From Hymenoscyphus infarciens (taxonomy: Eukaryota; Ascomycota; Leotiomycetes; Helotiales; Helotiaceae): a DNA stretch of 64,000 nt. The notes under the pieces are model-generated. The model saw nothing but the letters and a program-made list of their open reading frames with translations. It made no database searches and was not told the origin of the DNA. The stretch covers positions 62,001 through 126,000 of the forward strand of contig LLCB01000054.1 of assembly GCA_001414345.1 (NCBI GenBank), given 5' to 3'. Both the position numbers and the translations under genes were made by a program. Positions 10,355-56,500 of this stretch are shown piece by piece. Every line of letters starts with the position of its first letter. The stretch's first letter is position 1.

Positions 10355-12191
10355 ATGGCCGCAGTACAAGAACTCGCAGACCGAAACAAGATGGATACAA
10401 TCTACGTTGACACCGATACGGGAGCAGACGACGAGTCCGCCACCGGCACCGAAAGCAAACCATACAAGTCACTGGCCTACGCATACATCCAGCAAGGTGG
10501 CAGTGAGGGGAAAACATATCAATCGCGTGCCTCCACAACAGGTCCGGTCAGCGCAGATGGAGACCCAGCAGAGAGATTGGTATGGAGGGATCCTGCAAAG
10601 GCTGCAACCAAGAAGGCACAAAATGCATTGGATGCACACAAGAAGAAGGCATTGAAGCAACAACAACAAGCCGCACAGGAAGAGGAGAAGGAAAAGGCCA
10701 GGTTAAAGACCCTCGAAGATGCGAAGAAAATCGTCCTCACCGAAGATACCTCCCTACCTAAAGCCACCAAGATCACAATTGGCGACAAGACAGTTCAATT
10801 AGGAAAAGAGGGCACCAAGGGGGCTCGTGTCAAGGTTTCAGGTCGCATCCACAGATTAAGACAACAGAAGCAGGCTACATTCATTACCCTGATTGACGGA
10901 TATGGACATTTACAATGTGTTCTTTCTGGGGATCTTACAAAAACATACGATGCTCTCACATTCGCTCAAGGCACGTCCTTGACCCTCTATGGAGAGATGC
11001 GCGAGGTCCTTTCCGGTCAACAAGCTCCAGATAGCCGGGAACTTCACGTTGATTTCTACAAAGTCCTTGGTGCAAGTCCTTCCGATGCCGACGCTATCAC
11101 CAACAGAGTTTCCGCTCAACAAGATCAATGGGAATCTGCCATGTTGGATAGTCGTCATTTGGTTCTACGAGGTGATACTGCCTCTTCGGTGATGAAAGTT
11201 CGATCCGCGGTAGAGTGGGCATTCGCAAAGGCATATCGAGAGATGCACTTCACCAAGATCAGTCCTCCAGCTTTCGTCCAAACCCAAGTCGAAGGTGGAT
11301 CCACTCTTTTCGAACTGGATTACTACGGAGAAAAGACATATCTGACCCAATCTTCCCAACTCTACCTCGAAACTGGACTCCCAAGTTTGGGCAACGTCTA
11401 CTGCATCGAAAAGTCATTCCGTGCCGAAAAATCTCTCACTCGTCGTCACTTATCTGAATACACCCATGTCGAAGCCGAGTTGGATTTCATTGACTTTGAG
11501 GATCTACTTGACCATTTGGAAGAAATCATCAGCAAGGTCATCACCACACTCATGGATGATAAGGAAATTGCTGGTTACATCAAGGAGCTCAACCCCGAGT
11601 TTACTCCCCCCACGAGACCATTCAAGCGTATGAGATACTCTGATGCCATTGACTGGTTGAACGCCCAAGACCCCCCTATCCTCAACGAAGAAGGCAACCC
11701 TCATGTTTTCGGTGACGATATTGCTGAGGCTGCTGAGCGAAGAATGACGGATATCATCAACTTACCTATTCTTTTGACACATTTCCCAGTGGAAATCAAG
11801 GCTTTCTACATGAAGAAGGAGGATGCCGATCGACGTGTAACTGAGAGTGTTGATGTCCTGATGCCTGGTGTTGGAGAGATTGTGGGTGGTTCGATGAGAA
11901 TGGAGGGTTATGAGGAGTTGATGGAGGCCTATGCTCGTGAAGGAATTTCTCCCAAGGAATACTATTGGTACACGGAACAACGAAAGTAAGTTTTTCTTTG
12001 TGTTACTCTTTTCCCTTTTTCACCCCGGAAGCACGGGATCGATTGGGTTACTGACTAAATGTAGGTACGGCACATCACCTCACGGTGGATACGGACTTGG
12101 ATTGGAGCGATTCATTGCATGGATCTGCAAGCAACATTCTGTTCGTACTTGTTGCTTGTATCCTAGATTCATGGGACGATGCAAGCCTTGA
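10355..12191 (+). CDS. ded81: Asparaginyl-tRNA synthetase, cytoplasmic
   Basis: Exons 10355-11985 and 12065-12191, intron of 79 bp, 585 residues. The N-terminal extension (IYVDTDTGADDESATGTESKPYK) is the AsnRS-specific domain, which separates it from AspRS. A charged linker (~70-125) is followed by an OB-fold anticodon-binding domain and a class II catalytic core. Visible core motifs are TQVEGGSTLFELDYYGE, TQSSQLYLE, motif 2 FRAEKSLTRRHLSEYTHVEAE (~354-374) and motif 3 GGYGLGLERF (551-560). It charges tRNA-Asn in the cytosol. The intron falls inside the codon for K544, just before the motif 3 region. Confidence 0.96.
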
Positions 12192-18755: not shown

Positions 18756-21700
18756 ATTAATAAGGTCCTAATCATTGATCAGATTATTAATTGATTAATT
18801 GATTAATATAGTACGTGACCGGCCCAGAGGTATAGGAGGCCGGGCCGTGTCCCGGGATAGCATCGGAGTAGCGCTCTGGCACTGCTAAGAGCTTAAGCGA
18901 GACCTCCTAAACTTTTTTATTTCAAGTCTTAATAAATTAGCTATTAATTATTTAGTAATATATATAAATAGTAAGTTTAAGCTTTATAGGTATTATAAAT
19001 TATTAGAGACTACTTGATTTCTAATTAAATTCTATTCTATACTTCTACTCTCTCTTCTTTAAGTTAGTCGAAAGAGAATAGATATAACTCTTCTAATTTG
19101 TCTATTAGCTAGGAAGTTATCTATAAGATCTAGCTATATTAACTCTAAGCGAGAGACTGTTTAGTTAAGCTGTTTTAGCTATTATAAAGCAACGTAAGAG
19201 ACTCTCTAGAGCGGCTTTTAGAGCTATTACTAGCTTAAAGAGCTAGGGGTTATATATAGAGAAGGAGATAGAGAAAGAGGAAGAAGGAGCCTAAGTTTAA
19301 GAATAATTACTTTATTCTTATTTAGTATATATACTATATAGAGTATATTAATTATATTAATCAATTAATTAATAATTGAAATAGATTAATTAATCTCATT
19401 TTATTAACACACGTGCTAATTATTAATCAGAGTAATCTAGAGTTATTAATTAGATTATTAATTAATTAATTAATTAATTTATACTTACACTGAATGTAAT
19501 TATGTTTAATTACTATACTCGAGAACTTCTACAAGTTTTGTTAATAAGTCTCCTTTACTTCTCTCTACTTTTTTTCTTCTTTTTTTTTCTTATAGATTTT
19601 TCTAAGTTACGAGGAGGAGGGAAAGCTATGCAGTGTAGTTAGTGTCTAGAGTAGGAAAACAGACGAGGTTTTATATTCTAGAAGAGCCTCGTCTCTTTTC
19701 TTACCTTTTTTTTAGAAAATACCTAAGTTTAAGTTAGAAGAGAGATTAGAGAGAGAGTTTTTACTATCGAGAGTTAACTTTTTTAAGAGTATTAGTAGAT
19801 ATTAGTTTATTACTTATATTTATAACTATCTTCTAAGCTATTTCTCTAGCTCTAGCTCTAGCTCTAGCTCTGGTCCTAGCCCTAGCCTTAGAGATAGAAA
19901 AGCTAAAACTTAACTTCTTAGCCTAAGAGACGTGCGATTATTAAAGATATAACTATGTATATATATAAATAAATCTGACTTTGACTTTAACTTAAGAAAT
20001 AGTTAGAGGTTAAGTAAAGAAGAGAAGAAAAAGAAAGAATAAATAGAGGATTTGGAATTTGGAATTTTTTCTTCTTTTAGTAGAGTAGTTAAGTTATTAT
20101 AGAGTTAATTTTGTTTTTTATCTTTTTAGAGTTTTAAGCTATAGAAGGTTATAGTATTCTAAATCTATAAAAGTCTAAAAACAACTAAAGCGCAAAATCT
20201 TACTTTCTATAAGTAAAAAAGAGAATAATTAAAATCCCTCTCTCTCTTTCTTCTCTCTCCTCTCTCTCTCTCTCTCTCTATAATAAGACTAGATAGTCTT
20301 AACTATAGTAACTAGCTAATTAAAGAATAGAGAGAGATAACAAGTATTACGTATATAGTAGTAATGTCCTTACTATTAGATCTTTACTTTTTAATACCTA
20401 ACACTTATAAGATCTTCTTTCTATTATTTCTAGAGAAAAAAGAGAGAGAGAGAGAGAGAATTGTTTGCTATTTTAGCTAAACTTCTCTTATCTATACTAG
20501 GAAAAACTTTCTCTTGAAATTTTACTTACTCTCTTACTCTCTTATCTCTTCTCTTCTCTTCTATACTCTTATCTATCTTCTTATCTATACTCTCTTAGTA
20601 TACGTAATATATAAAAGAATAGAATAAGAAGTAAGAAAGTAAGTAGATAATATAATATAATTTTTAGCTTTAGCTCTTAGAGGCCTTAGTTAATCTAGCT
20701 AACTTTTACGATTTACGATTTGCGATTTAGTTGTTTTTAGACTTTTATACTTTTAGAACGCTTTATATTTATAGTTTTTAGAATTATAGAGAAGAAAGAG
20801 AGAGAAAGAGAGAGATATTTTTCTTTTTTCGAGTTCTTTAATAATAGGTTTTTAATAGACGAGTGTTTTATTATTAGAGTATAGTTTTAAATTTAGTTAC
20901 TTATATATATATATATTAAGAGAATATTTTTTAGATTTACTAGTTTAGTAGAGCTAGCTAGAATTTTAGTCTATTAAGTTTCTTTTCAGAAGAGTAATAT
21001 TAAAATTTAGATTTTCTATTTACTACTTATTAAATAATTTAGTTACCTTCGACGATTATAGAATAGATAATATTTTAATTATAAATTCTTAAATATCTTA
21101 AAAGATATATTCTTTCTAGCGACGCTTTTTATATACTTTTCTTTCTCACTTTCTAGTTAACTATTTACTTTTTCTTACTTTCTAAAGTACGTCTTCCTAG
21201 CTACTTCTATCTCTTTCTTACCTAGTACTCTCTTAAAAAAAATATATAATAAAAAAGAAGAGAATAAAAGAGAAAAAGCCGAGAGTTAGAATTAAGGTTA
21301 TAATAGAATCTCGTGATTACTATATCTCTTTTAGCGTTTTATATAACCTTTCTATACTCTTCTAAGAAAAACGCCTAGATTAGATATAAACGCTTTATAT
21401 AATCTCCTACTTTTATTTTTATAAATACGATTACTTTCTCTTCTTTTTTAATTCTCGACTTTTAGAATAGAAGCGCGAGAGTAAAGTTCTTAGGAAGGAA
21501 AAAGAGAAGTAAAGTAAGAAGTATAGAAGCTAAGAGCGAATAAATTAGAATAAACAGCGCTATTAAAATCACTACTATAGCGAAGTAAGAGTTAAGTTTA
21601 GTATTAGTTATTCTTTCTATATCTTTAGATAAATAGAGTTTATTTAAACCTAATTACTATTCTCTTCGCTCTTTACTACTAGGTAGAGACAAGAGAATAA

Positions 21701-22349
21701 GGCTATCTAGGATTAGAAAGAAAAGAATTAATTAAAACTTATATAAGATATAATAAGATAGAATAGCTATAAAAATAAAAAAAGTAAGAAAAGACATAGA
21801 TAGACGCGTTAAAGAGGCATAGGCGTACTAAACTAGCTAAGAAACCTTAAATACTATCTATATAACTCTAATATACTAGAAAATAATAAAGTCTAGTTTC
21901 TATTTAGAAGAGGCTATAAGCTTCTAAAGAAGTAGCTAGTTATTAAAAGTAGACAAAGACAGAGAATATTATAATAAAGTAAAGTAGATTCTAGCTAATC
22001 TTAAGCCTACTGTCAAAAATCCTTCTCTGTCTAGGTTTTCAATTTTTAGAAGAGAGTTTCTATCGTTGCTAAATGTTTTTCGTTTGAAAACCGAGCTATT
22101 CTAGCTAAATAATAAACGTCTTCTATAGTTACTAGAATAGCTATACTCTTACTTAATACAAAAGCGTATTAACTTCGGGTCAGGTTCCGAGAGAAGTTAC
22201 GAACTCTGCTTTAACTTCTCGTTAATAAACTAGATATATATACTAGTTTTCTATTTAGTCTTAGTATATATAAAAAAGAATAGAGAGTCTTATTACCTCT
22301 AATAATATCTTTTTTATTTAATAAAATAGTATTAAGATATAAGATATAA

Positions 22350-23135
22350 ATCTAACTACTAGTTAGCTTTAGAGATATATATATTAAGCTTTTATAAGTG
22401 AAGTAAGTTAAAGTAGAGGATTTAATAAGCTAATTATATAATTAAGTAAAAGTCTAATTAAATTATTTTTTTAAGATTCTCTACTAACTCGTTATATAAG
22501 TTAGTCGCAGCGACTCTAAAAGCGTACTAACTCTAAAATTAGTATCTTATACTCTTAAATATATAATAAATCAACTACTAAGCCTAATTAGGTAATTTTT
22601 ATATATATAGATAGTATTATATTAACTTAATAAAAGTCTTCGTAATATCTAAATTATTAAAGATAATCTATATACTATTTTATAATAAATTAGGTTACGA
22701 TTATAAGCTTTTAGAGAGAGCTTTAGCGAGTCTTAGTAAGCTACCCCGCCGTCGGCGACAAATTAGCGCCGAAGCGCTATATATAAGCTAAGAAGCTATA
22801 TATAGCTACTCTTTAGAATTTATTACTTCTTAATACACGCTTTAAATACTTATTCTATTATGAATATAGCTCTTTACTAGTATATCTTTAATTATATCTA
22901 ATAATTACTATTTTCCAACTATTAGTTATTAAGTAATTAATTATTTAGACTATATCTTTAGAGTCGCTACGTTTTAAGGTCGCTATAACTAACTTATATA
23001 GCGAGTTAGTAGAGGATCTTAATTAATTTAATTAGACTTTTATTTAATTATATTCTTAGTTACTCTCTTTACTTACTTTACTTAATAAATCCTAAATATA
23101 TAAATCTCTAAAGCTAACTAGTATACTATATAAAT
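22350..23135. repeat. Large imperfect inverted repeat inside AT island 1
   Basis: Left arm about 22350-22545 and right arm about 22960-23135 are reverse complements with substitutions. Matching blocks include CTCTACTAACTCGTTATATA on the left against CTCTACTAACTCGCTATATA read on the minus strand of the right arm, plus the CTAATTAAATT and CTTTAGAGATATATA blocks. The ~420 bp between the arms has a small GC-rich patch at 22741-22785. This looks like the ends of a mutated inverted-repeat transposon or two elements head to head. Confidence 0.7.
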
Positions 23136-23850
23136 AAACTTTACTAATCATATTTTACTTTTAAACACTTATCTTACTCTATAAATTTCCACTATATAAC
23201 TCTTCTAGTTTTTTCAAGATATATATAGATATATAGACTAGAGATAAGTATTTCTTAGGCTTAGATAGTGCGCTTCTTAGCTTATATCTCTTTTATTTCT
23301 CTTTTTACTTTACTTATAAAAGAGTTTAGGTACTCTTTAGTATTATTTTCTCTTTTCTCTTTTCTCTTTTTACTTTTTATTCTTTTCTCTTTTTTGTTCT
23401 TTATTCTTTTCTCTTTGATTTAAACTATATAAACATATTCTTTTCTCTTTGATTTAAAGATATATAAATATATTAATAATAAAAGAAAAATTAGAAGAAG
23501 GAAATGTTATATAAAGCTTTGTTAGCTAGCGATTCTATCTAGACATTTTCTTGTTTTTTATTTTTAAAAACAAAGCAAAAACAAATATTTTATTTCTCGT
23601 TTTTTTTAAAAATACAGAAATGTCTCTAGAATAGTTGTCGTATATAGAGTAGTCTAAATATAAAGCCAAAAAATAAATCACTATTTTATTTAACTTTCTA
23701 AAATTCTAAACTTAATTCTTTTGGAATTGTAGAGAGCTACTTAAGCGTCTCGAGAAGTTTCTATCAACACAAGAGAAGCTAACGACCTCTACATTCCTAG
23801 TCAAAATTTACAGATAAAACATATTCATTACAGCTATAAAGCAAAGATAT

Positions 23851-24161
23851 AAATACCTGCACTCTAATTATGTTTCCCTAAGATATACCACTCTGGAAGA
23901 CTATAGATTAACCAATAATAGATTTTTCGCTCCCAATCTTCATCTAGACCAAAAACCTACATGCCCGACTCCCAAGCCTAAACGCCCATACAAAACCTGA
24001 GGAAAAAAATCTATAATCGCTATCATACACAAGTCGAGAAGAAAAGACAAAGGAAACATTATTGCAAAGGAGCGCGCTATTGTAAATCTGTACCCCTTCC
24101 ACCATGCACACATATTACCCAACTCTTCTAATCAATCCCCTACCAAAGAAAGTAAACCACT
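23851..24161. other. Intergenic between AT island and ABC gene
   Basis: Short 3' flank of the ABC transporter with normal dinucleotide use. The island ends within roughly 300 bp of the ABC stop codon. No gene seen. Confidence 0.55.
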
Positions 24162-27100
24162 CTACTCAGCAGTCTTACTCCTCTTAGTCCTCAACTTCAT
24201 CAACAGATACACCATGGCATAACTGCTGATGACAAAGATGACACAGATCCCGGCGTCTCTCCATCCGTAAGTATATTCGAGCAGATTGACAGTCTTGAGA
24301 TAATCCGCACCAGTTCTGTACTGGCACACCTTACATCCAGTCGTGGCATCAGGATTCGTAAGATTCGAGAGAGATCCCGCACCATGCATATAATCGGCAA
24401 GATATTGAACACAAGTCTGTCCAGAAGGAGGATCGAAGATGGCAAATTCGGACAGCTTGCAGATGACAGGTGCATCGTGGACAGTAAACACCAACAGAGA
24501 ACCCATGAGGTAATTGAAGGGGTTAAGGTAATACAACCAGTATCTCCAGAACGGCGTGATGGCAACTATCTCGCAGTCAGTATTGCCCTTTCTAAAAGTA
24601 TGTTTGAGGAAAATGAAGCGGAGATAATGATATGATAGGGGAAGGTGTAGTGTCCGAGGAAATGGTGTCTCAATCCTCCCGAAACAACCTGAAAGAGGGA
24701 AAAAGAACTCAGAGATTACCCACCATATGGAACGAGGACACCGCAGAAGGATACAAGGACTCCGATGAGGAGAGGGTTGATGAGGGCGGCGAAGAGGGCG
24801 TTAGGTGCGTAGGCGGCAACAAACTGCCCGATACCTGTATACATGAACTCGTACATAAGCATGACGAAGAACACTGCGCCAGCTTTGCTCGAGTCGCTAG
24901 GAGCTCCTATGGTGTAGTACCAGCATACGAAATAAAGGACCGCACAGACGGCGAGGTATGGAAGTTCGGAAACGATGAGGCCTGTGACGAAGGAGACCCA
25001 GCTGTACATCTTGCTCTTTTTCTCTCTCGCTTCGTAAATGTCTCGACGATCGATAAAGACGGGCTGGAGTTGAGCAATGACACCGGGGGCGACGAAGATG
25101 AAGTTGAAGACTGTGAAAAGGCGAAGTTGAAGGTCGGCAATGCTATTGCCAATCATCCAGAATGAGAATCCATTGAACAGAGCAGAAAAGATGTGCAGTG
25201 CTGCTTTGTTGTTGATGTAATCTGTGTTACGCCAAATCGAAATGCTCATTCGTTGGGTGACAATTTTGATTTGACTGATCTCGGAGTTAGTATGGCCATC
25301 TTGCAAAGGTATGTATCACCAGGAGGGAGGGGGGAACAGGAGGGGGAAAGGGTTGTCTGGAAGGGGAATCTGGGCCTCGACCCTCCTAAAACAACCCGAG
25401 GGGGCAAAAGAACTTGGAGAACACCCACCTCCACATTGGCATGGAAAATTCAAAGCCATCATCCTTAGTCCCTGGTTCTTTGGCAGCTGCTTCGGTGATA
25501 ATTTGGTCCAATTCTTTGGTCATACTGTCGTGTTCAGGGGAGTTGAGCCAAACTTGGTTCCAATCCTTATGTCTGGAAAGCGGACCAGTAACCACATCTA
25601 TCATGTGCTCGGCAGGGTTGGCTTCGACGGGACAGGGTGCGTCGTTTCGTGCAAAGTAATCCTTGAGAATAGAGGAATTTTCGCCAATATCGCCGAAATA
25701 GACTGTCTTGCCTCCCTTGGCGAGAAGTAATAGACTGTCAAATTGTTGGAAGAGTACAGCAGATGGTTGATGAATCTATGACACATTAGCTTGTGTTTTG
25801 CTTGAGACTCCCTCACAGAGCGTGCTGGAATTCGTGACTGGTCAACAGCAGAATATTTCTGCTCTACCCCTTCCATGGTTCAACCGAGATTCGATAAATC
25901 AGTTCAATTATCCCAAAGTGTTGGGATAATCAAGTTTATGTTTTCGTTATTGTTTCGGAGATTTGGGACAGGGCTAGTGGGCTGAAGCACAAGCAAGAAA
26001 TCCTGCAGCCCTTGGTGCCCTCAGGACCAGGGACTTGTAGGGGAAAAGAAAACAAAGGATTACTCACTGTAACCAAAACTGCTTGGCCTACGTCAGCGAG
26101 TTTCCTCAAGAATCGTACAATGTTGAAAGCAGCTTGTCCATCAAGGCCAGAAGTTGGTTCATCGAGGAAAATAAGAATAGATGGCTTGGAAACAAGTTCG
26201 ACGCCAATAGTGACACGCTTTCTTTGTTCAACTGATAAACCAGCACCAGGAGTTCCAATGAGAGTGTTCTCAATATCGTGCATTTCTAGCAAATCAACGA
26301 TCGTGTCCACATATCGGAGTTTCTCGTCCTCGGGTGTAGTTCTTGGTTGGCGGAGGAGAGCTGAGAACTCAAGAGCTTCCCTTACAGTGGATAGAGGTTC
26401 GTGGACCTGCAGCAAATTAGCATTGGTATTTTGTGTGAGATGAAACGGCTGGGCGTGGAAAAGCATGCTCAGGATAGACACAAAAACTTGACAGTAAATA
26501 CGTCAGGTTGGTACCTGCCTAATTAACTCTCCTTTTAACTTTATCGGGCAATTCCAGCAGATCATCCTAAATGCTTAGGACGATTTAAGATTAACCTAGA
26601 CAGTTAGAACAATCAATTTCAATTGTCCCAAACTATCTAGGTCAAAAGTTTTGGATCTTCCAGAGAGTTTGAAGTGGCATCTTTTTACTGCCGCTTTTAA
26701 TGTTCACCGCGAGGCAGGTTCAAGAGCTATTGCCCGGCAAAACCAAGGATAAAAGAGAAAAAAACTCACATCAAGCTGCTCGCAGTAACCAGCGGATCGC
26801 TGGAAACTGACAGTGAGAGGCCGGCCATCAACCTGGATTGAACCTTTGACAGTACCATCAGTCTTGCGTTGAGCTAGCACATCCAATAGTGTGGTCTTTC
26901 CAGCTCCCGAGGAACCCATCAAGGCACCGAGTTGACCTGGTCTGACCCAACCTTGGACATCGTCCAGCAAGATACGAGGCCCAGATGGTGTTTGAACTGT
27001 GTAAGTGAGATTCTTCCAAGTGAATACAGAAGTGTTTTTGACCAGTGCCTCCTTGTTGACGTTAGTAAGCGTGTCTTCAGATGTTGAGCCGCCGCTTGAT

Positions 27101-29680
27101 CTAACGACAGGTCGTTCGTTCGTTGGCTGGGATTCCTCATCGGCTGGAACTGGTTTGTAGTGTTTCTGCTTCTCACGTGGAATCAAGAGAAACCCACTTT
27201 TACCACCGAGGGCGTCCCAGTTACAGGTGAAGTAAATAGTGATTGCAACATAGAATGCCCACCAAGCCCAGATGATTCCGAAATTTCGCCACAAGTTGTC
27301 ATAACTGTAGGAAAGAGAGGCGATATATTGATCTCCAGTGACAGATGTTGCTCCAGGTAAGGCTCCCCCAATTCCAGCACAGGCCTGGTGGACAAGGTCG
27401 GTATACTGAGGACCACTGGGAACAAGGTTTTGTGTGACACATGGAATGACTTTGTTGTGAAACTCGTTGGCCATGAGAGATTCGAACCCATAGGACATGG
27501 GATCAATCCAGTAAATCCAGACGAACCAAGGGTGCATTGCTGGTTTTGGGATCATGTAGCCGTTATACATGATAAATGCACTCACTATGAATCCAGAGAC
27601 CTTTGAAGCAGCATCGAAGGTCGGGAAAGCTGCACCAACTGCTCGGAAACATGCTGTCATTGCCATTGAGGTTGCGAAAAGAAAGATCCAGAACGTGAAG
27701 AAGGCTCCGGCTGTCTCTTTCAAGCCAACCATGAAGTATTCAACGAGGGCGAAATGACTAATTTGGAAAATGATGACGGGTATATCGGATGCGATCTGTG
27801 CTATACAGAAAGCCGCTGGATGATACAACGCGAACTGCTTGTGTTTGGCGAGAATGGGTCGACCATAGAAAGAATCAGTGACTAGAAATTGTTAGCAAGA
27901 ATAAAACGATAAACGAAATGTGCATTGCTCTCCGCCACCTTTACTCTTGAGTCTGCAAAGTAGTCTGAAACAACTGAGAAAATATTGTCCGAGAAAGTTT
28001 AGAAGAATTAGAAACTTGGTTTCTCGATTGTCCTGAACCTTCTCGGATAGTATATTCGATTGTTCCAAATGTCTCGTATAATCTTTGGTTTAAGTTGGTG
28101 CCGGAGATTTGGGGCTGGGTATGTTACGTACCTTCGGACATGGCGAGTAAACTGTTAAACAGCAATGATAAGAACAAAGCACCGCCTTTGAGAAATAGAC
28201 CCGCTGAAGTGTCAGGGGCGTTATAAAAGAGCGACCCAGATACCAAAGCCTGGACCAAAACCGAAACTTGCTTAATGATAAAGCTGCTTTTATCGCCCCA
28301 AATAACTTGATATTGGCGGGTCACACAGGTTTTGACTTGGGTAGTGAAGCTGACAGTCATTGGGGAGCTCGCAGGGAGGCTCTTGTGTTGTTCCTCACGA
28401 ACTCCGGCTCGGAAGTCTTCAGTTCGGGCGGTTGCCTCGCCTGTGTGGGGATAGTCGTACTCCGCCTCCATTTTGATCCTAATGTCTGATTGTTCGTAGG
28501 CCGATCTAATCTCGCGGGCTGTTTTTGGGAAACTGGATTCAAAGCCGGGTCGAATCTTTCTCTCCGAGGGTACAGTAACGCCGGTCAAAAAATCTGCCAC
28601 GTTGGCTCCGTCATCGCAGTGAAATCCGAGACCCTCCATAAAAGGCCTTGCTTGGTCCTGTGGTCCATAGTAAATCTGTTTTCCCTCATCGATAACCAAA
28701 ACCTTATCGAAGAGGTTGTAGATACCGTTCCCGGCTTGGTACAAAGTAAGAATCGAAGTTAAGCCAAAGATATCGGTCAATGCTCTGACTGCCTTGGCGT
28801 ACTCCAGTGCTGTGCTGGCGTCGAGACCTCGTGTGCTGTTGTCCCAACAAAATATACTTGCTCGGGTCGCAAGAGTCTCAATGATGCTGACTCTCTTTCT
28901 TTCTCCACCGGAAACACCTCGAACAAATTCATCTCCAACTTTGGTCTCGTGTGTGTGAGAGATGCCCATTGATTTCAAGAGGAATTTCCGGCTTTCCTGT
29001 TGAAAGTCCTTCGCGTTTGTCGAGTCTGATGGAAGGTTGAACGGCACCTTTAGCCTCGTTGCAAAATCGATCGTCTCTGCGACGGTGAGTGTGGAGTAGA
29101 AGATTTCGTCCTCTGTATTCATGACGATTTGTCCTCGGTATCGCGCTGCTTCTTTTGGATTCATGGACCCAAATGAAACATCTCCAGTGACTTCGGCATA
29201 TCCACCTCGCCTATTGGCGAGCATTTTGAGCAGCGTTGTGCAGCCAGCTCCAGGTCTTCCGAGTACCAAAAGCATCTCTCCTGGCTTCACACATCCATGG
29301 CTCTTGTCGATTATGGTCCTCATGGGTATCTTTTCTTTCCGATCACGCACGCCATTCATGAAGTTGAATTGCGATCCCACGTTCTCATTGATGGCAGCAT
29401 CGGCTCCAACTCCCAACACGGTCAAGTTGGTCCAGGTAACACCAAGTTTACGCCCCTTGACACCGTCCTTCTCGTCCTGGGCTTGACGGACCTTCAACTC
29501 TGGCATCATTCGCCAATCGCTGCCCATGTCTTCCCTCTCGTTCTCATCGTCTTCGTCATCGTGGGCTCGACTTTTCTTTCGTTCCGAAAAGTAGGAGGAA
29601 TTTGTGAGAACTCGTGTGATGATGTTTTCGCGAGGAGAGTGAACTACCGACTCGAAGCCCTCAGGCTCTTGGGCCGCCAT
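24162..29680 (-). CDS. PDR-type ABC transporter (ABCG, full size)
   Basis: Six exons: 29680-28132, 27881-26770, 26406-26068, 25775-25429, 25274-24724, 24565-24162; 1433 residues, standard for fungal PDR pumps in the order NBD-TMD-NBD-TMD. NBD1 has Walker [10 protein letters not shown] (~140; Cys for Lys, normal in this family), signature VSGGERKR and Walker [19 protein letters not shown]2 has Walker [10 protein letters not shown] (~838), the divergent signature LSVEQRKR, Walker [13 protein letters not shown] and H-loop IHQPSA (~1001). PDR signatures such as VTDSFYGRP and [16 protein letters not shown] loops are present. It is a plasma-membrane ATP-driven exporter of hydrophobic compounds such as fungicides or plant defence chemicals; the substrate is not predictable. 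All five introns are long (250, 363, 292, 154, 158 bp); see findings. The start is [11 protein letters not shown]; the frame extends upstream without need. Confidence 0.95.
24566..24723 (-). repeat. ABC intron 5, introner-like
   Basis: 158 bp intron. It shares with intron 4 the 5' block GTGGGT..TCTC..AGTTCTTTT, an inner block GGTTGTTT followed by GGAGG, and the 3' end ATACTGACTGCGAGATAG (intron 4: ATACTAACTCCGAGATCAG). Confidence 0.75.
25275..25428 (-). repeat. ABC intron 4, introner-like
   Basis: 154 bp intron resembling intron 5 along its 5' ~60 bases and its last ~19 bases. The acceptor used here is ATCAG at 25275, which restores the family sequence [11 protein letters not shown]; a TACTAAC branch point lies just upstream. 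Confidence 0.75.
25776..26067 (-). repeat. ABC intron 3 with dispersed repeat, copy D
   Basis: 292 bp intron. Reading the minus strand it holds CCCAAATCTCCG, then GATTATCCCAACACTTTGGG with the perfect hairpin ATTATCCCAA..TTGGGATAAT, and GTCACGAATTCCAGC, the last shared with the 45.8 kb copy. The first ~25 bases (GTGAGTAATC, then TTCTTTTCCC) also resemble introns 4 and 5. Confidence 0.7.
26407..26769 (-). repeat. ABC intron 2 with dispersed repeat, copy B
   Basis: 363 bp intron. Minus-strand order: AAAAGCGGCAGTAAA, GATAGTTTGGGACAATTGAA, GATTGTTCTAACTGTCTAGG, AAATCGTCCTAAGCATTTA, GGCAGGTACCAACCTG. The middle pair can fold into a hairpin of about 20 bp. The same blocks recur at 42.6-43.0 kb. 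Confidence 0.8.
27882..28131 (-). repeat. ABC intron 1 with dispersed repeat, copy C
   Basis: 250 bp intron with CCCAAATCTCCG and GATTATACGAGACATTTGG then AACAATCGAA on the minus strand, matching intron 3 in order and spacing. It also has paired GAGAAA..TTTCTCGG arms. Confidence 0.7.
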
Positions 29681-53560: not shown

Positions 53561-56500
53561 TCAGAGGACGTCCTATTCTAGTTGTTTATCCCAGCCTCGT
53601 ATTTTCTCCCGCTGGCCTAGTGTATCCTAACCTAGGAATAGCCTCACGTTTTAGCCTTCTCGCAGCTAGATGATTACTTTTCTTGCTCTTCTTATTCAAT
53701 TCTTTAAGAGGTTTTCAGTCTTCCTAGGCCTAGAGTAGTAGCTAGCTAAGTAAGATATTTATTCTATAGAGTATAATATAGTACTTTTAGTAGCTTTAAT
53801 AACTAGTCGTAGAGTATATAAATTAAAAGACTATAGTAATAGATTAATTAGTTAGTAAATATACTCTTTAATGTCTCTGTTATAGATATATAATATAAGA
53901 GACTTATAATATATTATTTCTTATAGTATAAATACTTATAAATACTTTTATTTTCTATTTAATAACTCTATTAGAGCTAACTTATTTAGTTCTACTCTAA
54001 AATTTTATCTATACTTACTATTAATAATTTATAGTATATTATTAAGAGTTAATAATAATAGTAGCTTTAAATCTACTTTTATAATTTTTAAAAAACTTCT
54101 ACTTTTCTAGAGAAATTAATATAAGTATTCTAAAAAGCTTAGAATACTATTATAAGCTTAGATCCTATTACTATATATTATATATTATTATATTAGATAT
54201 TTACTTTTAACTAGATTAGAATTTACTTACTCTTAGAGAATTTATACTTTCTTTATTATAGTAGTAAATATCTAATTCTCTATCTTATAATATTAAATAC
54301 TAATACTACTTCTTCTAATCTTATATTTAGAATATTATATAATTCTTAAAAGCTTTTAAAAGAAGATATTATATTAGTTAAATACTTAAGCTAATAATTT
54401 AATCTATACTATTAAGTCTTAGTATTTTTAAAATTAAATAATACTTTATATAATCTTCTTATTTAAGCTCTATTTAAGTATATAATATAGCTACTATTAC
54501 TTAGTCTATAGAAATAACTAAATATACTCTTTTTCTATTATATTATTAACTACTAAGTTATACTAATATATAGTATAAAAAAGAGCTAATAATATAAATA
54601 CTTAAAGCTTAATAAACTAGATATAAGTTTTATTATAAGCTTTGATATTTAAAGAATTATTTAAATAAAATATATATAATATAATAAAGAAAAAATAACT
54701 ATATATTAAGTAAATAAGTAGTTCTTAGAAAGATCTTTATCTATTAAAAAGAAAGCGTAAAAAATCTTTTACTATCTACTAGTAATATATAAAAGATCTT
54801 AGATTATAATAGTCTCTAAAAGCTAAAAAATATAATTAATAAATAATTCTTATCTTTTAATTTCTAGACTTTATTTAATTATTTAATATTAATAGAAATA
54901 GTATTTTATTCTATTAAAAAGAGTTAAAAGAACTATTTAGTAAATAAGATTATACTCTAATCTTTTATCTCTTATTATCTCGTCTTCTAATATCTAATTA
55001 CTTATAGTATATTATAAAAGAGATATAGTTAGAAGTTTAAAAGTTTAGTTTTATATATTTATTAAATACTTAATATTATATTTTAGTAAAACTTTTTATA
55101 AAGTATTATAATTTATTACTTATATACTCTTTTTATAAACTTACTTTTATAACTTTTTAGAAGAGTGTTTTTAAAGCTATTTTAATAAAATTATTATATT
55201 ATATTTAGCTAAATTTTAGAGTTACTCTAGAGATCTATCTAAGTATATTTTATCTTTTTTATTTTATTAAAATATTTTATTAAAATATTTTATTATATAC
55301 TTTTTATATAGTTATAATCTAATTAACTTATAAGAAAATATCTTATAAATATAAATAAAATAAAGAGTATAGATATAAAAAGATTTAAAAGAGTAGTTTT
55401 TAATAAAGACTAGAAACTACGTAGTTAAAAGATACTTTAGATCTATTTCTAAGCTTATTCTAAAGATTAGAAAAATAACTATTATAGTAGTTATAGCTTC
55501 TAAGTCTTAAGAAAGCTAAAGAAAGATAAACCTAGTTTATTTTTATAAGAGTAGTTTTATAAATAATAAAAACGATTCTAAGAAGCTTTCTAAGTTCTTT
55601 ATTTAGTAAATTATATATAATATAAGCTACTTTACTAAAAAGAGAAAATAGAAGCTAAAATTAGATAGAAATTTATAAGTTATAGCTATAAAGACTCTTT
55701 TTTAAATTAAACTTTTATAGTATATCTTTCTTAATATAATATTAATCTAGTTAAAACTAGAAAAGTTAAATTAGTATTAGTAAACTAAGAATAATAATAA
55801 TATAAAAACTAAGATAATAAAAAGATATTTAAATAAGTAGTTCTTTAAAATATATCTAGAATAAAAATAATATTCTTATTAAACTTTTTATTTAGAAACT
55901 ATAAAAGAGATATAGAAAAAGTTAAAAAAGAGAAAGAAAGTATAAAATAAGTATTTAACTAGTCTTTTTTAAATAAAGAAAACTCTAAAAGAGATAATAT
56001 AAGTTAAAAAGAGATAGAGATCTATAAAACAAAAGATATTTTTGAAAGTATTTCTAAGAAAGAGAAGATTTAAAAGAGAGAATAAAAGTAAAAGAGAGAT
56101 AGACTAGTATTAGTTATAAAAGAGATATCTTAAGTCTAGAGTTTTTACTTAGTATAAGAAGTTAAAAATAAGAAAAATAAAAAAGATACTATACTTAGCT
56201 ATAGAGAATACTTCTTATACTTATAAAGTTACTAAAATAGTATTTAAATACTTTTTTATAAAAAAGCTCTTTTACTCTACTTTGTTTTCTAAACTTAACT
56301 CTATTAAGTAGATCTAGAGTTATATAAGAAAGAGATTTTATAAAAGACTTATTCTTTCTAGAAATAAGAAGAAGTTTAAAATAGACTTAGATTAAGAAGT
56401 AGAACTAGATTCTTTAAATAAAATAAAATATTATTAAGATCTATATTATTAAAAACTTTTATATACTAGTAGAATAGTCTAATATAAGCTATACTAGCTA

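What the first reader, a model, noticed from the sequence alone, without database searches (positions are those of the whole stretch)
24566..25428. ABC introns 4 and 5 are related to each other: introner-like elements
Seen directly: introns 4 (25275-25428, 154 bp) and 5 (24566-24723, 158 bp) of the same gene share the 5' pattern GTGGGT..TCTC..AGTTCTTTT, then GGTTGTTT and GGAGG, and the 3' ends ATACTAACTCCGAGATCAG and ATACTGACTGCGAGATAG. Unrelated introns normally share only donor, branch and acceptor. Intron 3 also starts in a similar way (GTGAGTAATC..TTCTTTTCCC). Known: introner-like elements, near-identical multi-copy introns, are described in several Dothideomycetes. Inference: these introns arose by copying of one intron.
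Basis: partly seen in the sequence, partly recalled or inferred. Interest (0 to 1): 0.82.

Follow-up and report, generated by a model that had tools for sequence, protein, structure and literature searches.

The report
Self-copying introns in a cup fungus
Two introns of one fungal transporter gene belong to a large family of look-alike introns that spread through unrelated genes of this genome, a known way in which new introns are born.

Summary
ABC introns 4 and 5 are homologous from donor to acceptor (score 318; maximum of 1000 shuffles 169-216 in three schemes). They belong to a genome-wide intron family: a 25-base 3' motif matches 146 places, its reversed control none. Of 98 near-full-length copies 94 begin GT or GC; splicing keeps the frame open more often than shifted splicing or retention. 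Similarity stops at the splice sites, without target-site duplication. Removing both introns leaves gap-free alignments with all 120 listed homologues. This is an introner-like element family. Corrections: the fungus is a Helotiales relative of Hymenoscyphus, not a Dothideomycete; introns 4 and 5 are separate, old insertions (65% identical; family mean 73%); intron 3 is not a member. Also found: a second, unrelated family (40 matches scored); a progenitor hairpin not maintained in resident copies; and insertions of both families in five HET genes within 3 nt of the same site. RNA-mediated spread is inferred, not shown; no RNA-seq was available.

The parts
24566..24723 (-). ABC intron 5, 158 nt: introner-like element, family A
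   Evidence: Profile score 144, E 4.3e-43; 40 further matches to it listed in the genome, 73-90% identity; gap-free protein after removal.
25275..25428 (-). ABC intron 4, 154 nt: introner-like element, family A, more decayed (27% from consensus)
   Evidence: Profile score 67.5, E 1.4e-19; as a DNA query 8 other matches; gap-free protein after removal.
24718..24723 (-). 5' splice site GTGGGT of intron 5
   Evidence: Sequence; GTGGGT is the donor of 61 of 98 copies.
25423..25428 (-). 5' splice site GTGGGT of intron 4
   Evidence: Sequence.
24576..24580 (-). branch-point-like CTGAC of intron 5
   Evidence: Conserved ATACTRAC in the family alignment; role inferred from fungal consensus, recalled.
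25286..25290 (-). branch-point-like CTAAC of intron 4
   Evidence: As above.
24566..24583 (-). 3' end ATACTGACTGCGAGATAG; about 7 nt shorter than the family consensus end GAGATCATCCRCAG
25275..25293 (-). 3' end ATACTAACTCCGAGATCAG; about 6 nt shorter than the family consensus end
24162..29680 (-). host gene: PDR-type (CDR/SNQ2-like, ABCG) ABC transporter, six exons, 1433 aa
   Evidence: Spliced model; Pfam ABC2_membrane, ABC_tran, PDR_CDR; one stretch 68-1418 to CDR1, 9iuk_A; 82% to HYFRA_00013222 over residues 1020-1433.
25776..26067 (-). ABC intron 3, 292 nt: not a family member; holds part of a different multi-copy repeat
26407..26769 (-). ABC intron 2, 363 nt: not a family member; holds part of another multi-copy repeat
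27882..28131 (-). ABC intron 1, 250 nt: not a family member; contains an imperfect palindrome of about 80 nt

Best explanation
Introns 4 and 5 of the ABC gene are two independently inserted, now decaying copies of an introner-like element (family A, consensus about 167 nt, at least 146 places by its 3' motif). Shown: the copies share sequence from GT to AG and not beyond, lie in unrelated genes, and removing them joins the reading frame without added or lost residues. Inferred: the element was a transcribed intron whose excised RNA, a long self-paired hairpin with its ends brought together, was put back into transcribed coding DNA or RNA by reverse splicing and copied into DNA, so each insertion is born as a working intron with both splice sites of its own. 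After insertion only splicing signals matter and the hairpin decays. My odds: introner-like element 0.97; spread through an intron RNA (reverse splicing or capture of intron RNA at a break) about 0.7; reverse splicing in particular about 0.45.
For: Homology against shuffles. 146 motif matches against 0 for the reversed control; 60 and 55 against 0 for two other motifs. 94 of 98 near-full-length copies start with GT (92) or GC (2); frame open >= 60 nt each side in 82 of 98 at the predicted acceptor, 67 and 62 with the acceptor shifted by 1 or 2 nt, 23 if the element is kept; >= 100 nt: 67, 43, 28, 10. The longer open frame is on the element's own strand in 76 of 94, on the other strand in 17. 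A Pfam domain runs across the junction in 6 of 10 selected spliced proteins. No target-site duplication at k = 2-8 in any of three comparisons, n = 94. Flanks of different copies are unrelated in DNA except where two copies share one gene. Both ABC junctions are gap-free within 14 columns in 120 of 120 listed homologues (of 2615 found). Two intact paralogues read through both sites. Consensus hairpin -46.2 kcal/mol, 0 of 1000 shuffles as stable in each of three schemes.
Against: No transcript data: splicing is inferred from frame and protein homology. 16 of 98 copies do not keep 60 nt open at the predicted acceptor. The hairpin shows no covariation among the 94 copies (81.96% of cells paired against 81.84% shuffled; 46 compensated cells against 44.4), so it is a property of the inferred progenitor only. 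The terminal 6-bp stem of family A alone is not rarer than chance allows (P 0.03-0.17). Phylogenetic recency is shown only against paralogues and proteins, not orthologous DNA.
Confidence: 0.85

Rival explanations
1. A small non-autonomous DNA transposon (MITE-like) with inverted-repeat ends that happens to carry both splice sites and moves by cut-and-paste, as proposed for algal introners.
For: The consensus is a long inverted repeat from its first base to 2 bases before its end. Most introner families outside ascomycetes show DNA-transposon marks (PMC9860276, Results read).
Against: No target-site duplication of 2-8 nt in 94 copies; both splice sites are carried by the element and the protein is left unchanged; copies lie mostly in sense (76 of 94), although selection could also remove antisense copies.
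Confidence: 0.15
2. Intron RNA is captured into DNA double-strand breaks during repair and copied, as proposed by Fekete and co-workers for symmetrical stwintrons, rather than reverse-spliced.
For: Seamless insertion, hairpin progenitor, no duplication; same features in PMC8469720 and PMC12403724 (discussions read).
Against: The exon flanks are not random: -3, -1 and to a lesser degree +1 are biased (p 1.6e-5, 2.6e-8, 0.0026), and insertions recur near one site in HET genes; both suggest a site preference, though splicing needs alone could select the donor-side bases.
Confidence: 0.25
3. Intron 4 and intron 5 arose from each other by duplication inside the ABC gene.
For: Same gene, same family.
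Against: 65% identical, less than the average pair; each is closer to many introns of other genes; the only flank match between them is the shared exon between the two introns.
Confidence: 0.02
4. Ordinary ancestral introns that resemble one another by chance or shared splice signals.
For: Donor, branch point and acceptor are of ordinary fungal type.
Against: paralogues lack them.
Confidence: 0.01

Closest known systems
Introner-like elements of Dothideomycetes (Fulvia fulva, Dothistroma septosporum, Zymoseptoria tritici; Collemare et al. 2015, PMC4457414; van der Burgt et al. 2012 known through it)
   Same: Full-length similar introns in unrelated genes, several families per genome, more than one in a gene, seamless insertion, hairpin-forming progenitor, decay into ordinary introns.
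   Different: Different class (Leotiomycetes); family A mostly old (mean pair 73%, best pair 95%) where active Fulvia and Zymoseptoria elements reach 98-99% (PMC4457414, introduction read). Site bias here is R-W-R / Y, not the AG/GY reported for Capnodiales (cited in PMC8469720).
Sister stwintrons and cropped sister introns of Hypoxylaceae and Xylariaceae (Fekete et al., PMC8469720, PMC12403724)
   Same: Inverted-repeat symmetry, seamless insertion without target-site duplication, near-terminal complementary ends, decay of symmetry in older copies.
   Different: The copies here look like single canonical introns; no [D1,2] twin structure was seen, though none was formally searched for. Exon borders are biased here, unbiased there.
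Introners of Micromonas, Aureococcus and other eukaryotes (Gozashti et al. 2022, PMC9860276)
   Same: Introns similar up to both splice sites, many copies in genes.
   Different: No target-site duplications; both splice sites carried by the element. That paper reports no TIRs or TSDs for ascomycete families; here the consensus does have inverted-repeat ends.

Membership tests
Introner-like element | Similar introns in many unrelated genes of one genome | tested here: met
   146 motif matches, control 0; flanks unrelated.
Introner-like element | Similarity reaches both splice sites and stops there | tested here: met
   Column composition drops to background outside GT...AG.
Introner-like element | Functions as a spliceosomal intron | tested here: met
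   By frame, Pfam and homologue alignment only; transcripts not available.
Introner-like element | Seamless insertion without target-site duplication (ascomycete type) | tested here: met
Introner-like element | Predicted stable secondary structure or inverted-repeat symmetry | tested here: met
   Consensus: 0 of 1000 shuffles as stable. Individual copies only mean z -1.37 and no covariation.
Introner-like element | Near-identical copies showing recent multiplication | tested here: not met
   Mean pair identity 72.8%, maximum 95.2% among 94 family A copies. Family B is 78.6% mean, 88.0% maximum among 15 copies. This concerns age, not kind.
Introner-like element | Newly gained positions, absent from orthologues | tested here: inconclusive
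   Two intact paralogues lack both introns; unspliced-looking metagenome proteins span both sites (that such calls ignore introns is recalled). No orthologous DNA was available.
DNA-transposon introner | Target-site duplication | tested here: not met
   n = 94, k = 2-8, three comparisons.
[D1,2] stwintron | Internal intron splitting the donor of an external intron | not tested
   No formal search; an internal CAG/GTTGTT at about position 35 of family A would leave an internal intron of about 35 nt, too short by inspection.

The most novel reading that the evidence does not exclude
A Helotiales genome holds at least two unrelated introner-like families, and where they land is set by the target rather than by the element: in five HET paralogues, family A (three) and family B (two) inserted 5, 5, 5, 6 and 7 nt upstream of the Arg codon of the R-x-W-x-x-Q-E motif, in all three phases, next to two further paralogues with other introns 4 and 7 nt upstream. 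Independent intron gain at one homologous site would then be common inside a single genome, and intron positions shared by paralogues or species could be parallel gains. A second pair of homologues (L047, L066) carries family A copies 4 nt apart.
Probability: 0.45. Interest if true: 0.75.

Novelty: new member of a known kind. Interest (0 to 1): 0.6.

Why it matters
[quoted passage not shown] My searches of the paper library for introners together with Leotiomycetes, Helotiales or Hymenoscyphus found no description in this class; the species tables of PMC9860276, which were not seen, could contain one. Two families in one genome, a hairpin that fits the progenitor but is not kept in resident copies, and repeated insertion near one codon of a large gene family make the question of target choice and of parallel intron gain testable with existing Hymenoscyphus genomes.

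Tried and rejected
Plasmid collection: no match. Rfam: no family in the window. tRNAs: none. RNAalifold on all 94 copies gives no structure (0.0), and pair counts show no covariation; so I do not claim a conserved RNA structure in resident copies. Test for slower-than-neutral hairpin loss: real copies 2.3 kcal/mol more stable on average than randomly mutated consensus, 56 of 94, p = 0.079: not accepted. Exon -1/+1 complementarity: 41 pairs against 47 expected: rejected. Near-terminal stem alone: P 0.03-0.17 for family A, 0.003-0.05 for family B: suggestive for B only. The HET intron of L161 looked by eye like a decayed family A copy, but the profile gives E 0.23 and it matches four other places only by bases 47-94: rejected. 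Intron 3 and intron 2 as members: rejected.

Selection and drops: the 98 copies are those of 143 profile hits with score >= 40, model start <= 4 and end >= 150, minus two that repeat another fetched stretch; four of them with other donors (L049, L057, L130, L139) were dropped to give 94. The 10 proteins were picked from 22 printed because they looked like known families. L160-L163 were fetched because their HET matches end at model positions 137-140, so an intron there was to be expected; that two of them are family B was not. One search lists only 100 of its 146 places.

Full report
1. Observation. Their alignment runs from the first to the last base, score 318, and none of 1000 shuffled pairs in each of three schemes came near (maxima 169, 189, 216).

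2. A genome-wide family. The window lies in contig C492 of a 65.6 Mb assembly of 742 contigs. Intron 5 as a DNA query gave 41 matches including itself (40 of 88 candidates were scored; two rows are one copy), most of them full length at 73-81%. Intron 4, more decayed, gave 9 including itself. Motifs from three parts of the element match 146, 60 and 55 places with up to 3 mismatches, and 0, 0 and 0 when read backwards. I fetched 124 of these places with flanks and built a profile of 167 positions, which gave 143 hits in the fetched stretches and the window.

3. They are introns. Of 98 near-full-length copies, 92 start with GT and 2 with GC. With the predicted acceptor, the frame is open for at least 60 nt on both sides in 82 of 98, against 67 and 62 with the acceptor moved by 1 or 2 nt and 23 with the element kept; for 100 nt the numbers are 67, 43, 28 and 10. 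In 94 copies the longer open frame lies on the element's strand in 76 and on the other in 17. In 6 of 10 selected spliced proteins a Pfam domain crosses the junction (HET twice, sugar transporter, GST, short-chain dehydrogenase, GH28); in one the best HET stretch ends before it and three have no family. For the ABC gene, the spliced protein aligns in one stretch to CDR1, and in the alignment with the 120 listed homologues (of 2615) no row has a gap within 14 columns of either junction.

4. Borders. Base composition falls to background directly outside GT...AG. There is no target-site duplication of 2 to 8 nt (n = 94, three comparisons). The exon flanks are biased at -3 (A or G, p = 1.6e-5), -1 (G or A, p = 2.6e-8) and weakly at +1 (T or C, p = 0.0026) and +2 (p = 0.013; 16 positions tested). 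The donor side may only reflect what splicing needs.

5. Two separate insertions. Introns 4 and 5 are 64.9% identical, the mean pair 72.8%; the other ABC intron ranks 56th and 90th of 93. Divergence from consensus is 27.0% and 17.8%, family mean 17.9%, range 6.3-28.9%. In the same genome, two intact paralogues at 37-39% identity read straight through both sites. Five more cover the intron 4 site without a break, though four of them contain stop codons. At the intron 5 site three partial paralogues are unbroken, and two have another intron 17 nt upstream, much like the near-coincident positions described for other species in PMC4457414 (abstract, introduction and first part of results read).

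6. Structure. The consensus folds end to end into a hairpin of -46.2 kcal/mol; 0 of 1000 shuffles are as stable in each of three schemes. The three subfamily consensuses also fold well. Resident copies do not keep the pairs: 81.96% of cells paired against 81.84% after shuffling, 46 compensated cells against 44.4, and stability falls with divergence (Spearman 0.43, p = 2e-5). I read this as a property of the copies that propagate, lost once they sit in a gene. The same reading is given for Hypoxylaceae introns in PMC8469720 (abstract and first part of discussion read).

7. A second family. The intron of HET gene L163 matched 19 places including itself end to end. A consensus of 15 copies gave 40 matches (40 of 74 candidates scored), 34 of 40 over all 127 bases, up to 93%. 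The copies share GTATGY...YAG. Of 15 copies the frame is open for 78 nt or more on both sides in 10, over all the flank available on the shorter side in 3 (53-62 nt), and not in 2 (L166, L168). Family A's profile does not find it. Its consensus hairpin is weaker (9 of 1000 shuffles as stable).

8. A shared target. Three family A copies lie in HET genes 6 (L033), 7 (L059) and 5 (L115) nt upstream of the Arg codon of R-x-W-x-x-Q-E, in phases 0, 2 and 1; two family B copies lie 5 nt upstream (L162, L163). L160 and L161 have other introns 7 and 4 nt upstream; L164 and L165 have none there, L165 carrying a family A copy elsewhere. The genome has 144 HET matches (150 of 165 candidates scored); the 11 best run unbroken over the site. 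L033 and L059 proteins are about 25% identical while their introns are 86% identical, and L162 and L163 are each closer to other family B copies than to each other, so these look like independent insertions. L047 and L066 are homologous genes with family A copies 4 nt apart. Of five homologous pairs found by BLASTP between different genes with alignable junctions, two coincide within 4 nt; pairs were found in regions centred on the junctions, which favours small offsets, so I give no p-value.

9. Organism. The asparaginyl-tRNA synthetase at 10355-11989 is 97% identical to Hymenoscyphus fraxineus, the next named hit 90%. So this is Helotiales, near Hymenoscyphus, and by the 82% probably neither of those two species.

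10. Mechanism and standing. Seamless, sense-oriented, duplication-free insertion of an element that brings both splice sites, with a self-paired progenitor, fits propagation through intron RNA; DNA transposition and capture at breaks remain possible. The kind is known; class, families and the HET coincidence are what is added. Gozashti et al. (PMC9860276, results read) report introners in Pezizomycotina without listing species in the text I saw.

Noticed in passing
L163 (C61:98061-98185) and 40 listed places: A second introner-like family (B), 127 nt consensus, donor GTATGC or GTATGT, unrelated to family A.
   Followed up: partly
L033, L059, L115, L162, L163 (HET genes): Insertions of both families 5-7 nt upstream of the Arg codon of the same HET motif, in three phases.
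   Followed up: partly
L047 and L066: Homologous genes with family A introns 4 nt apart; the protein motif resembles UstYa-like HxxHC from memory, not tested.
   Followed up: no
window 25776-26067, 26407-26769, 27882-28131: ABC introns 3 and 2 hold parts of other multi-copy repeats; intron 1 holds an imperfect 80-nt palindrome.
   Followed up: partly
L064 (C703), about 828-926: A family A copy split by a roughly 97-nt insert with inverted-repeat ends, MITE-like. L096 and L097 copies also carry unrelated inserts in the middle.
   Followed up: no
L032 (C732:114630-116006): One family A and one family B copy on the same strand about 0.5 kb apart, perhaps in one gene; C259 (L021/L129) has two clear family A copies and a weak third within about 1.3 kb.
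   Followed up: no
L059 (C156:18098 onward): A 126-nt family A copy without in-frame stop: retention would keep the HET frame open, so it could add 42 residues if not spliced.
   Followed up: no
window 20000-24000 and 54000-56000: AT-rich blocks (about 26% and 16% GC) between genes of 45-50% GC, as expected of RIP-affected repeats; not analysed.
   Followed up: no
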